DNA of 64,000 bases from Thereva unica (Eukaryota > Arthropoda > Insecta > Diptera > Therevidae), in contig OX465281.1 in assembly GCA_949987705.1 (NCBI GenBank), forward strand, positions 6,426,001 to 6,490,000. The letters are read 5' to 3'. The translations under genes were made by a program, and so were the position numbers. Below are positions 18,201 through 36,200 of this stretch, piece by piece. The stretch's first letter is position 1, and every line of letters begins with the position of its first letter. The notes beneath the pieces are model-generated. The model ran no database searches. It was not told the origin of the DNA and saw only the letters and a list, made by a program, of their open reading frames with translations.

Positions 18201-21200
18201 ACAATATCAGTTAACGTACACGTTGCAAATAATTCTAATAGGACTGTTAAAAAAATCAAAGTATTTGTAAGGCAATTTGCCGATATATGCCTATTCTCAA
18301 CAGCCCAATATAAATGTATCGTTGCTGAAACAGAATCCGAGTAAGTAAACCCACAATCACAAACTCCACAGTATTTTCGAATATATCCTTATTATAACTT
18401 TTCTTCTTTATTACAAAAATAGAATTTCTTTTCTTAAAAAACACTTTTCTTAAAAAAAGAAAACACAGAGAAAAAAAAAGTATAAAAAAATGGGTTTCGT
18501 CATTTTTATTTTTATTTAGTTTTTAAGTTAAAAAAAATAAAAAACAAAAAAAATATAACTGTGTATAGAGCAGAAACATTTAATATTATTTGAATCTAGA
18601 GATAACCCGGTTTTACCTGGGTTTACCTTGTCAAAAGTCTTCCAAGTGCAGCCCTTGCTCAAGAATAACAAAAATAAAAGAGGCCTTGCACTCGACGGTC
18701 AGCTAAAGCACGAGGATACGAATTTGGCATCCAGTACGATGTAAGGATTTCTTTATTTTTTTTTATTTAATGATTTTTTTTATTTAATTTGTAATTTTTA
18801 TATTTATTTCTCCTTCATTTTGTTTTTTGGAAATTGGAGACTTTGTAGAATCTTTTTTTTTTTTAAGTTATATTTTATTCCATTTTTTTCACCGGGGTTT
18901 TGGTTTTATTTTTATTACCGCTTAAAAATTAACACCATATTTTAATTGAAGCTGAAAATTTATAAAAATTCATTTTTGTAGTAGTTTTTTAGTACTAAAT
19001 TTTGAAGGTTTTTTCACTCATTTTATTTTTTGGAATATTTTTTTTTAATAATTGGCGCTTTTATTTTATTAAAATTTTTGTATTTTGCTGGATTTTTTCT
19101 TTTGTAAATATTTTTAGGATAAAAAACAACGAAGATGTATTTTTTAAATTATATTTTTGGAATCCTGGCACAGTAGATAGGAGTCACGTTGGTATAGAAT
19201 ATAATACACTAGGGTGATCGTAGGGATAAAGGAGAATTTTTTTACCGAATTTTACCAACGGGAACCCCACAAAATGATCAGCCTTTGCAGATTTTTAGAG
19301 ATAGCCAAAGTTTTAGCACGATTGGAGAACGTTAAATCTTGCCGATACTCGCTTAAAGTTGGCCTTAACAGCCTTTGTCACCAAAAACGTGACCTGATAC
19401 CTCTAAGACAGTAGTTCCCAAACTTTATTTCGTACGGAACCTTTCTACAGTGTATAAAATTTTGCGGAACCCAACAATGAAAAAATAAATTAATATATGA
19501 TGTACATATGTATGTATATTTATCCTTCAATATATTTTAAAACGTTTTTATTAGCTCGCTTTCTTGTCTGTCTGTTTGTCCGGTACATATCTTGCAATCG
19601 ATTTTTTGAATACTTCCGGTTACCCGATCACCCCGAAATTTGCACACCACTTCAGCTCCAATGCAATATGGTATACTCAATATACTGTGAGATCCATGGC
19701 GGCCATCTCAAGAGGACGGATTACTGTTCTCTTCACGGGACAAATTTTGCAATAAATTTTTCAAATACTTCCGGATATCCTATCATGCTGAAATTTTGCA
19801 TACAGCTTTAGCTTCGATGACAATGCAATATGGTATACCCAATATGCCTTTAGATCCATGGCGGCAGTCTCAGGAGGGCGGATTGAAATATTCTTCACAA
19901 CCCCTTCGACATGGGTATCACACGAAAGGGTATGATAAGTAGAACACCATAAGCAATATAGTATACTCAATATATCGTTTGGTCCATGGCGCCCATCTCA
20001 AAAGGGTGGATTACTATTTTCTTCATAACCCCTTCGACATGGGAATATGGAATGGCGGCCAAAATGTTACGCGGCGTAACGTAGACCAAATTTCAAGGAA
20101 GAAGGGCCACTCGCACTTTCTGATTAGCAAGAACGCGTTAAACGGCCGGTGAGTCTGCGAATGTATTTGCGTTTCGGCGCTGGTGATACGGAACCCTAAA
20201 ATATTTTCGTGGAACCTTAAGGTTCCGCGGAACCTACTTTGGGAATCACTGCTCTTGGAACAAACTCCGAGTATTATTAACTTCCCAGTATAGGGAAGTT
20301 ATTGTAATCAGTCCGAAAATCGAAATCGAAATTTTCAATGTATTTTCATTTTTCAAGGTCCCAAGAGCATTTCAAGCAAAAAATTGGGTTGAAGTATGTG
20401 CGTGTGTGTGCGTACGTATGCGGTCATTTTTTCCTGCAAGATATCGCGCGAATCAAAGATAACGACTTCGTTGAGGTTTGGTTCGAGGCGTATTAACGGA
20501 AATATGATCTGAAAAGATTTTTATAAAAATTGGTCGAGCCGTTTTTGGGTTAAAACTAGAGATGCGCCGAATATGGGTTCGACCGAATACGAATATTCGG
20601 TCAAAAATGTACCGAACCGAACATTCGGCCGAATTATTCGGTTCATTTTTGCAGAGTTCATATAAGTCGGCGAAGCGATCTGCGAGTAGCAGCGTTCGCC
20701 CACCCCTTGAGCACTTCGCGCTAGCTCGAATATGACTGGGTGGTCATCCAAACAGAGGAACCTGTGAAAAATACCAGTTCATTCTTTCTCCTTATCAACG
20801 AGAAGCCACCGGAGGAGTAACCGGGGCAACACCCAATCTTCGTATTCCGAAGCACGGAGAATTTTCAAGGTTGAGTGGAAGTATTGGATATCACGCTGTC
20901 CATGGTCAAGGAAACATTTAAAGTAGTAAATTGGAGAGTAACGGACCACCCATGATTACGCTTCAAAGTAAGCCTGCAAGTTGAAGCCCCAAGAAGGACT
21001 AACTACAAAAAGTTGGGTAAGGGTCCAAAGAACGCCAACAGTAGGGGCAACAGGGTTTATGAAAACATGCCCCATGAAAGCTGTGAACGTTCTCTTGCAC
21101 CTACTCCCTCCGACCTTCACATCAAACATATAGCCTCGTGTAGTGCCCTCAGACTGAGGGAATCCGGTGCCTGGATCTCAAAACCCTGCGGACATAACAA

Positions 21201-33200: not shown

Positions 33201-36200
33201 GTCAATTAAAACATGAAGACACCAACTTGGCCTCAAGTACCCTGTAAGTGTCGCAATATGTTTTGTAGTACTACTAATTAAGAATTAAAATCCTATATAT
33301 ATATAATAGAATATAATTAGCATCTATTTACTATAAATATAATCATAAAAAATTTTTATATAATTGTCTAGGAATTTTTTATGTGACAAACCGGTTTGCG
33401 AGTGGTGAATGGTGAAAATTTGCACTTTTGTAGGTCGTTTTTAAAATTTGTTTTGAGTTTAGTTATTTGGGATTTGTATGTTCTGAAAGGCATATTATTT
33501 TGCCAATAAACATATCTAAAAACATTCATTTCTGGATCTACCTCCACTGTTCCAGTCCATGGAATATTGTGAAATTTATTGGAAGCTACTTTCCACTTTG
33601 TGATTCTGTTTACTCTTAGATGTTGTTCTACATCAACGTCTTTCTGCAACATTATTTAGTCAGGTAGAATAATCTGCAGCTCTCACTGCGTGCCAATCCC
33701 TGCTGATGGATCCTATTTGGGTTCCACAACGTTTACTTCATTGTACATACTTTAATAATTCATGATGATCTTCTTTTTCGTTGATCCGTTAGCTGGTGGA
33801 CCGAAAAGGACGTCCCTGAAATGGATATGCTGCTGTCATTGACGTTGGGTCTCGAACTCCATTCACGATTCGTTGTCATTCCTGCCAAATTTGGTGGCAT
33901 ATCGAGCCTCGATAACTAATGATCGTTGATTCTTTAAGTCGCCCTCGATATTCTTTAGCCACGTTTTCTTCGGTGCCGATCGCTGACTTCTCCAATTTCT
34001 GTCGGACGGTCTCGTGGCAAGCGATTATCGTCCATTCGGCAATCACGCCCAAACCACTGTAGAATCTGCCCCAAACATTGTATTTGGAAGACCTCAAGCT
34101 GACGTCTGGCTTGAGCAGTGTCCCCGTTTCGGAAGAATCCGAAGGATCAACGTTCGGTAAAAGCGTATTTTCGTTTTGATGGTTCGTTTCCATCTGCATC
34201 AAGTCGGTTACGAAATTGTTGTCGTCTTGTCGAACTCCGCGTCGTCCATCGAATGCATCGAATGTCCATCGACGTCTCTTTGTCGGACACCGTCTGAATC
34301 GGGAACTCCTCCGATAAGTCGCTTCGAATACGAACGCTGCTGGTTGAGCTATCGTATGACTGGACTGGATGAATTTCACTAGCAAATATTCGGTTTCCAA
34401 AGCTCTCCACAACATGTTCCAATCGGTGCAATTGAAAACGTATTCGAAATCGATGGAAACGACCACAGTTCGTTTCCCGCAACGAATTCTTTCTTCCATT
34501 AGCTGACGGAGAGTGAATATTTCATCGATGCATCCTAGATGTGGTCCAAAATCCCGCTTGTTCTTTCTGGCTCATTTAATCTCGATGTTTCTGTAGGCTC
34601 GATTGTATGACTTTCGTAAATACTTTGCCGACGATCGAATGGAGGCTAGTACCGGGATAATTCTTACATTCTCGACTGTCGCCTTTCTTCAAAATTGGCA
34701 CAACGGTCGCCTTTTCCACGCCGAATGCCATATATGTGTTATGAGCACGTGGAGTTGCTATGATAAGATATCACTTCCGGCTTTGATTATGCACTTTTCA
34801 GCGATTTTATTGCCGTCATCACCTCGATAATTGTCGATTCGGTATCGAGAAACTGATTCGTTGGCTATTCGATAATCGGCGGTTCGGGTGCTGGTCCTTG
34901 TGGCGGATCGTGGTTGTACAGCTGATGGAAAAATTCTCTCTACCGCTGCAGGCGCCAATGGGGACAGGTCAAGAAAGTTCCATCCAATTTTTGATGCTGT
35001 CGTTTTTTGATGTTGTTTTGCCGCCTAACCGCAGGATTGTCGGCTACAGCGTCCGATACTCGTGCCTCGACGCAGCTTCTTCCTTCTAGTACGCTTCTCG
35101 TTCCGATTTCATTTTCTGTCGAACTTCTTTGTGCAATCGTTGGTATTGCTCGAAATTGGCCTATTTCATTCGTTTACGCTGATCGACTAGGTCCAGACAG
35201 CTGCCCGAAATCCATGGCTGCGTTCGTTTGCACACACCCCACTCCGATAATTGCCTTTCTTCATTCTTCTACATTCATATCGTCTGGTATTGCGAGTGCC
35301 GCGAATTTGTTGGATAATGCCTTTTGAAACTCTCGCCCAATGGCTGGGTCCCGAAGGCACGACCAATTCCTCTTGGCTGGTGGTGGCTCCGTTTTTTTCG
35401 CACTTTGTAATCGCATCTGTAATTTCTCTCGAACAAGGTAATGGTCCGTCCGCACATACGTCTTTGAGCGTCGATCAAAATTTAGTCTAACATCGCCAAG
35501 TCTTTGCCGGATGGATTTCGCCAGGTGGTGGTTGGTGTTTGATTGGATAGCGGAAGATGCTGTTCTCAACCATCAAATTGTTTGACACTGCGAATGAAAA
35601 AAGGCTAAACCATTGTGGTCAATTTCTCCATGTCCGAATTTGCCCATCGCTCCTTTACAACCGGTTCGATCTGCACATCAATGTGCTTTAGAGTACCCCG
35701 CGAGTATGATTAATTCGGTTCAAGGTATCGTATCCAGCGTCTGTTGAAGCTGATCGTAAAAAACGTTCTTGCTCGCATTCGGTTGGCGCATAAACGCATA
35801 TGGGTCTTGATCGTTCTACGGGTGGTTGTAACCGCCAAACGTTTGTAACCGATAACGCTGCTGGTAGTCCGTCGATCGTCCATAAATCCGAACCCGGCCT
35901 CTCGTTTCTCACCACCGGAATAGTAACGCGTCATCGTTTTGTCGATTGTTGGCGGAACGATCGTCAATTGCCCGGATTCGGTAAGTCTTAGTTCCGATAG
36001 CGCAAAACTGATATTTTGCATTTCGATAATTCGGTTGCAATGATTTCCCTTTGACCGACGTGATATCCAGTTCGTATATTCCACTCGGCGAATTGAATTT
36101 CCATTTGCGGTAACCGGTAACCCACTTCACACCAGCATCCCCGGTCCCTGGGTCTGCCGCCCGGATGCGATAGCATTATTTCGTAAATAGCTAGTTAGTA

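What the first reader, a model, noticed from the sequence alone, without database searches (positions are those of the whole stretch)
18600..33243. Two alternative versions of one beta-arrestin exon, 14.4 kb apart, look mutually exclusive
Seen: 18600-18740 and 33100-33243 each encode PGFTLSKVF...LDGQLKHEDTNLASST, each with AG/GT boundaries and phase 2 in and out. Either one links exon C to exon E in frame. They differ at seven or so residues in the shared core, at the N-terminal C-loop (DNP-VLPG against DGCQVPPG) and at most synonymous sites. That means old divergence with protein-level selection on both copies. Known: this segment holds the arrestin lariat/gate loop whose Asp residues make the polar core that senses receptor phosphates. 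Inference: the gene makes two beta-arrestin isoforms differing in the activation switch. D has R where D' has W, and vertebrate beta-arrestin-1 also has R there (NREKRG, from memory). I do not recall such exon pairs described for kurtz.
Basis: partly seen in the sequence, partly recalled or inferred. Interest (0 to 1): 0.88.

Follow-up and report, generated by a model that had tools for sequence, protein, structure and literature searches.

The report
Arginine/tryptophan splice switch in fly beta-arrestin
This fly's beta-arrestin gene, which encodes the protein that shuts off many hormone and neurotransmitter receptors, carries two old alternative copies of the exon for its receptor-sensing loop, one giving arginine and one giving tryptophan at a key receptor-contact site; splicing likely picks one copy and would thereby change which receptors, or how strongly phosphorylated ones, the arrestin binds.

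Summary
Observation confirmed. The gene is a kurtz-type beta-arrestin (+ strand, 2969-50508). Exon R (18600-18740) and exon W (33100-33243) share phase, have clean splice sites, and each joins exon C to E in frame. They encode ARRB1 residues ~259-304, the whole lariat loop. Synonymous sites are saturated (pS 0.98, pN 0.14): an old duplication, both copies constrained. The same ordered pair recurs in insects and crustaceans (R first in 39 of 39 two-block proteins), and twelve species have separate R-only and W-only records. The diagnostic site is ARRB1 R285 (bovine arrestin-1 R291), which published work ties to receptor contact, glucagon-receptor coupling and preference for phosphorylated rhodopsin. 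A missed 30-nt microexon (40247-40276) follows the pair; Anopheles funestus is annotated with all four combinations. Not shown: RNA from this species; strict exclusion (41 annotated proteins carry both exons; 0 of 55 contig-derived ones do); a single origin (AU p 0.012 against one W clade); the effect of R to W.

The parts
2969..3294 (+). Exon 2 of the kurtz-type beta-arrestin gene (DGVVLIDPDY...GVDYELK)
   Evidence: splice sites and frame; Pfam Arrestin_N on the joined protein
3354..3530 (+). Exon 3 (AFVGEHIEDK...ASLDKE)
18183..18340 (+). Exon C (LYHHGE...AETESE), carries the C-loop; donor GTAAGT
18600..18740 (+).
   Evidence: R-type relatives
33100..33243 (+).
   Evidence: W-type relatives
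40247..40276 (+). Predicted cassette microexon M, 30 nt, phase 2/2, SRNLVDGQYR, inserted right after the lariat loop
   Evidence: same peptide pattern in 23 of 256 proteins; 0 matches in 200 mononucleotide shuffles of the window
42082..42174 (+). Exon E (IADPSQRESLGIIVQYKVKVKLFISGPILGG); pyrimidine-poor acceptor
42242..42409 (+). Exon F (DLVAELPFILMHPKPEEE...LIQLDG)
50427..50508 (+). Last coding exon (DEAGPDDDIIFEDFARLRLKGAETEA, stop TAG)

Best explanation
The gene is a kurtz-type beta-arrestin with two tandem-duplicated versions of its lariat/gate-loop exon, R and W, plus a predicted 30-nt microexon, and splicing likely includes one version per transcript so that the receptor-contact residue equivalent to ARRB1 R285 is either arginine or tryptophan. 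Shown here: both exons are intact, in frame, old and under protein-level constraint; the same ordered pair occurs in insects and crustaceans; database records of 12 other species contain R-only and W-only isoforms. Inferred: this species uses both. Inferred from mutations of the same residue in mammalian arrestins: the R form would be the classical, phosphorylation-selective arrestin able to make the arginine contact with receptors, and the W form would bind with a changed receptor preference and less dependence on receptor phosphates. Inferred: the choice is made by trans-acting regulation, since neither exon length nor frame forbids other combinations. The microexon would lengthen the end of the loop independently, giving four isoforms.
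For: Exon anatomy and frames. pS 0.98 with pN 0.14. Among 256 proteins returned by three capped searches: 182 W-only, 35 R-only, 39 with both blocks; in 39 of 39 the first block is R and the second W (34), C (4) or F (1). In hand-picked rows the diagnostic column is R in 32 of 32 R-type and W in 28 of 31 W-type (2 C, 1 F). Twelve species have R-only and W-only records (A. albimanus, aquasalis, arabiensis, funestus, merus, maculipalpis; Ph. papatasi, Ph. argentipes, L. longipalpis, B. coprophila, Z. nevadensis, S. piceifrons; read). Anopheles funestus: X1 W+M, X2 R+M, X3 W, X4 R. Of 55 proteins with an lgn or jgi source, 0 are double, 6 R, 49 W; several, such as P0001, P0089 and P0117, are near full length on contigs of 1.7-4.3 kb, which points to spliced RNA (inference). 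Position: R285 by my count on the alignment. PMC10866553 (passages): R285 contacts ICL1 or ICL2 in the beta1AR, M2R and NTSR1 complexes, R292 in mouse arrestin-1/rhodopsin; V2R could not be resolved at this point. PMC10447241 (passages): R285A nearly abolishes beta-arrestin-1 coupling to the glucagon receptor. PMC9360436 (passages): the R285 side chain reorients between basal and phosphopeptide-bound states. PMC12733242: R291A, R291E and R291Q reduce arrestin-1 preference for phosphorylated rhodopsin.
Against: No RNA from this species was available. 41 of the 120 proteins listed carry both exons in tandem, from Diptera, Hymenoptera, Hemiptera, Coleoptera, lice, cockroach, termite, mayfly, dragonfly and crustaceans, so both-in transcripts may be real; the Lygus hesperus record P0058 is UniRef-only and, from recall, of transcriptome origin. 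Frame does not forbid double inclusion or double skipping. A search for competing pairing in 300-nt flanks gave no signal (14 duplex tests, z -2.0 to +2.6). Weak acceptors do not single out the alternative exons: W 0.35 and M 0.35 are pyrimidine-poor, but so are E 0.29 and the last exon 0.47, and R is 0.59. R exons of different species are no more alike (mean 0.80 of 40 columns) than R and W of one species (0.81); W exons are (0.92). The exon-peptide tree rejects one W clade (p 0.012, 45 columns) and needs 4 R/W changes. Not all lgn proteins are RNA: P0099 is from a 27-kb contig and P0120 looks as if it reads through an intron. Nothing I read tests tryptophan at this site.
Confidence: 0.7

Rival explanations
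1. R and W are alternative cassette exons that are often included together, giving a long arrestin with two lariat-loop segments as a real third form, so the pair is not mutually exclusive.
For: 41 of 120 listed proteins span an R-W junction, many named as RefSeq-style isoforms; frame is kept.
Against: 0 of 55 proteins with an lgn or jgi source are double against 39 of 201 others (Fisher p 6.5e-5, descriptive only, since the set pools three ranked, capped lists). Short-read assembly could hide a minor form, and several doubles are unnamed gene predictions. A duplicated C-domain segment is hard to reconcile with the arrestin fold (inference; the prediction of a double had too little confidence to use).
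Confidence: 0.18
2. Only the W exon works in this species; the R exon is a silent relic kept by chance, as it seems lost in higher flies.
For: None of 33 proteins with the signature TAQYKS (Drosophila, Musca, Glossina, Bactrocera and unnamed ones) has an R-type block; in Callosobruchus the first block has decayed (P0136, P0139); the top hit, P0001 (96.6% to the W isoform), is W-only.
Against: The R exon here is open, with both splice sites, and its 19-residue loop block is identical in protein to W while 15 of 19 codons differ; its nearest rows are R-type rows of Condylostylus, Culicoides and Phlebotomus.
Confidence: 0.09
3. Exon pairs arose more than once (insects and crustaceans separately), or one origin was blurred by gene conversion, and converged on R then W.
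For: Crustacean and mayfly R rows fall among W rows; AU p 0.012 against one W clade; starred branches force at least 2 changes; R exons are on average no closer to each other than to their own W.
Against: Same order and same diagnostic residue in 39 of 39 doubles; only 45 columns, bootstrap not settled; the LTP motif of crustacean R rows also stands in bovine ARRB1, so it may be ancestral. This concerns origin, not present use, and can hold beside the best explanation.
Confidence: 0.25

Closest known systems
Mutually exclusive tandem-duplicated exons (Dscam1, Mhc and 14-3-3zeta of Drosophila; recalled)
   Same: Homologous neighbouring exons of equal phase, alternative use, switch of one protein segment
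   Different: Here the host is beta-arrestin and exclusivity is unproven; frame and a short intron (R-W intron 14.4 kb) do not enforce it, donors are ordinary GTAAGG/GTAAGT; no competing pairing found in 300-nt flanks
Vertebrate beta-arrestin splice forms (ARRB1 8-residue insert; ARRB2 11-residue insert, recalled)
   Same: Splicing diversifies a beta-arrestin
   Different: The ARRB1 insert lies after VVSRGG (alignments), not in the lariat loop; no exon swap of R285 known to me
Visual arrestin p44 splice form
   Same: Splicing alters arrestin activation (PMC11173308 passages)
   Different: p44 is C-terminally truncated; here the C-terminus is kept and the lariat loop is swapped
Drosophila Kurtz
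   Same: Same gene family and the W-type exon (P0070)
   Different: No R-type block among the 33 TAQYKS-type proteins seen, Drosophila included; genomes were not searched

Membership tests
beta-arrestin (kurtz) | Arrestin_N and Arrestin_C domains | tested here: met
   Both isoforms pass Pfam cut-offs for PF00339 and PF02752
beta-arrestin (kurtz) | Closest solved relatives are beta-arrestins, not visual arrestins | tested here: met
   Beta-arrestin-1 462.8 bits, cone arrestin 387.3, S-arrestin at most 351.5 among the 60 of 66 rows shown
beta-arrestin (kurtz) | Both gate-loop aspartates of the polar core present | tested here: met
   LALDG and HEDTN are intact in both exons; roles from PMC12733242
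beta-arrestin (kurtz) | Clathrin and AP-2 binding elements in the tail | not tested
   Tail DDDIIFEDFARLRLKG resembles the AP-2 site from recall only
mutually exclusive exon pair | Homologous exons of the same phase between the same flanking exons | tested here: met
mutually exclusive exon pair | Each exon used singly in transcripts | tested here: inconclusive
   R-only and W-only proteins in 12 other species and among contig-derived proteins; no RNA from this species
mutually exclusive exon pair | Never or rarely joined together | tested here: inconclusive
   0 of 55 lgn/jgi proteins double, but 41 of 120 listed proteins are
mutually exclusive exon pair | A mechanism that enforces choice (intron pairing, steric hindrance, U2/U12 clash, frame) | tested here: inconclusive
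   Frame kept by double inclusion; 14.4 kb intron; ordinary GT-AG sites; pairing test without signal, but only 300-nt flanks of one genome

The most novel reading that the evidence does not exclude
An insect-and-crustacean splice switch, inherited for hundreds of millions of years and lost in Drosophila and its kin, toggles beta-arrestin between a phosphate-selective arginine form and a phosphate-lax, differently targeted tryptophan form, so each cell sets by splicing which receptors its arrestin silences.
Probability: 0.32. Interest if true: 0.86.

Novelty: new variant of a known kind. Interest (0 to 1): 0.68.

Why it matters
Vertebrates use several arrestin genes; Drosophila has a single beta-arrestin, Kurtz (PMC9624432 passage), and related arthropods may instead diversify such a gene by swapping its receptor-sensing loop. 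The swapped residue is a receptor contact in most of the solved complexes compared in PMC10866553, so the pair is a natural experiment on arrestin selectivity. The Drosophila reference protein shows only the W form, so fly genetics would have missed it, while mosquitoes, sand flies, ants, termites and shrimps have records with both.

Tried and rejected
Recent segmental or retro-duplication: rejected, since flanks do not match and synonymous sites are saturated. R exon as a chance ORF or a separate gene: rejected by homology, phase and place between C and E. Intron pairing as the chooser: no signal in 300-nt flanks. Structure prediction of a double (P0002) and of an R+M form (P0110): mean pLDDT 36.7 and 43.6, too low to use; no fold search was run. 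Own-genome search: not completed, so the N-terminal exon and any second locus are unchecked. The Bradysia-type cassette was looked for in the window with two motifs and not found; the Lepidopteran cassette was not looked for.

Limits of the counts. The counts 182/35/39 pool three searches with different queries, 120 rows listed each, and show presence and order, not usage. P0107 and P0135 span the R-W junction but missed the stricter pattern (39 against 41), so P0107 sits among the 35 R-only. Four of the 55 lgn/jgi proteins (P0087, P0151, P0233, P0253) also have ncbi or uniref sources. That lgn stands for Logan assemblies is recalled. The rows were picked by hand (26 double proteins, the window pair, 9 single-exon rows, bovine ARRB1); Bemisia and Cyprideis R rows were left out of the tree as out of register. 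On rechecking I lowered the main confidence from 0.72 to 0.70 and moved two rivals and the novel case by 0.01, because some lgn contigs look genomic and because weak acceptors also occur on constitutive exons.

Papers. Searches looked for the exon pair or insect arrestin isoforms, 31 and 34 for R285. Only the listings were seen (25 of 40 papers; 10 of 2,015); none of the listed titles or abstract starts describes the pair. Most subscription papers are not held, so absence from print is not shown. Read: PMC12733242 (abstract, outline, Results part 1, passages); PMC10866553, PMC9360436, PMC10447241, PMC9624432, PMC11173308 (passages only). PMC12120669 (Johnson 2008 on Kurtz) is not held.
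Full report
What is there. The + strand of the window holds a kurtz-type beta-arrestin gene from exon 2 to the stop codon: 2969-3294, 3354-3530, C 18183-18340, R 18600-18740, W 33100-33243, predicted microexon M 40247-40276, E 42082-42174, F 42242-42409, last 50427-50508. 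The N-terminal exon was not found in the window. The joined proteins pass Pfam cut-offs for both arrestin domains, and their best solved relatives are beta-arrestins. Introns: C-R 259 nt, R-W 14,359, W-M 7,003, M-E 1,805, E-F 67. A reverse transcriptase ORF lies in the R-W intron (31133-32545, minus strand).

The pair. R and W enter and leave in phase 2. C-R-E, C-W-E, C-R-W-E and C-E are all in frame, so frame does not enforce exclusion. Of 46 aligned codons, 37 encode the same residue and 25 of those use another codon; pS is 0.98 and pN 0.14. The stretch GLALDGQLKHEDTNLASST is the same in both although 15 of 19 codons differ. That excludes a recent copy and shows constraint on both exons. By my count on the alignment to beta-arrestin-1, the exon covers about residues 259-304. 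That takes in the whole lariat loop (274-300) but not the C-loop (241-249; ranges from PMC10447241). The R/W site is R285, five residues before the first polar-core aspartate.

Relatives. Three protein searches (3420, 969 and 1068 hits, 120 listed each) gave 256 distinct proteins. By the residue before GLALDG they are 182 W-only, 35 R-only, and 39 with two blocks; in 39 of 39 the first is R and the second W (34), C (4) or F (1). R/W pairs occur in flies, wasps and ants, bugs, beetles, lice, termites and cockroaches, a mayfly, a dragonfly, and in shrimp, crab, isopod and ostracods. In 63 hand-picked rows the diagnostic column is R in 32 of 32 R-type and W in 28 of 31 W-type. Over 40 columns and 28 species, W exons are alike between species (0.92), while R exons are no more alike between species (0.80) than R and W within one (0.81); R has evolved faster. 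Twelve species have separate R-only and W-only records. None of 33 proteins with the signature TAQYKS (named ones are Drosophila, Musca, Glossina, Bactrocera and kin) has an R block, which suggests, without genome proof, that higher flies lost it.

Microexon. M reads SRNLVDGQYR with AG/GT sites and phase 2/2. The pattern SR..[VL]DG.YR directly after the lariat loop is in 23 of 256 proteins, with R in 4 and with W in 19; the named ones are mosquitoes, Lutzomyia and Bradysia. It gave no match in 200 mononucleotide shuffles of the window. Anopheles funestus is annotated with all four combinations (P0149 W+M, P0115 R+M, P0083 W, P0060 R).

Exclusive or not. 41 of the 120 listed proteins contain R and W in tandem; their sources are ncbi, uniref or nr. 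Of 55 proteins with an lgn or jgi source, 0 are double, 6 R and 49 W, against 39 doubles of 201 others (Fisher p 6.5e-5). The lists are ranked and capped, short assemblies can lose a minor isoform, and some lgn entries look genomic (P0099 on a 27-kb contig; P0120 with what looks like a read-through intron). So this argues only that double inclusion is not dominant. Pyrimidine content before the acceptor is low for W, M and E (0.35, 0.35, 0.29), middling for the last exon and R (0.47, 0.59), and high for exons 2, 3, C and F (0.94, 0.71, 0.71, 0.82); all AG sites in the window average 0.50. Since E and the last exon are in every form, this is weak support for regulated choice. A duplex test for competing pairing in 300-nt flanks gave no signal (14 tests, z -2.0 to +2.6).

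Origin. A tree of 62 exon peptides over 45 columns (the R/W column left out) needs 4 changes between R and W, against 19.6 in shuffles. It places the crustacean and mayfly R rows among W rows, and the AU test rejects a single W clade (p 0.012). The alignment is short and the bootstrap had not settled, so one origin is plausible from the fixed order and residue but is not shown.

Likely working. PMC10866553 (passages) names R285 among residues in contact with the compared receptors (beta1AR, M2R, NTSR1, and rhodopsin for arrestin-1; V2R unresolved there). PMC10447241 (passages) reports that R285A nearly abolishes coupling to the glucagon receptor. PMC12733242 (Results part 1) reports that R291A and R291E more than double binding to unphosphorylated rhodopsin and that R291Q also lowers selectivity; the word tryptophan does not occur in its text. 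From these, the R form would be the phosphate-selective classical arrestin and the W form a less phosphate-dependent one with changed receptor contacts. This is inference: W at this site was not tested in anything I read.

Known or new. Tandem alternative exons and arrestin splice forms are both known kinds. No listed title or abstract in eight full-text searches describes an exon swap of the lariat loop that changes R285, although public gene models already contain the isoforms. I rate it a new variant of a known kind.

Noticed in passing
   Followed up: yes
window 31133-32545 (-), 60249-60533 (+), 61316-62473 (+), 12098-12874 (+): Retroelement remains (reverse transcriptase, endonuclease, RNase H domains); the first lies in the R-W intron
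   Followed up: partly
window 17633-18078: Nested 73-100 nt inverted and direct repeats (CCCCTGTGCTGAA... ends) just upstream of exon C, like a foldback or MITE cluster
   Followed up: partly
P0176, P0181, P0184, P0247 and others; P0024, P0028, P0030: Lepidoptera and Bradysia records carry a further cassette near the pair (for example ...FPFWRMFSKK... before the W exon; TISWKSLFKWWL in Bradysia); the Bradysia type was not found in the window with two motifs, the Lepidopteran type was not looked for
   Followed up: partly
P0093, P0095, P0099, P0104, P0120: Contarinia and four unnamed proteins are R-only with KHDDSNLASST in the loop; possible reciprocal loss of W, not tested
   Followed up: no
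P0052, P0079, P0088, P0130, P0133: Second block has C (lice, Eufriesea) or F (ostracod) instead of W at the diagnostic site
   Followed up: no
P0136, P0139: Callosobruchus first block is strongly decayed, as if the R exon were being lost
   Followed up: no
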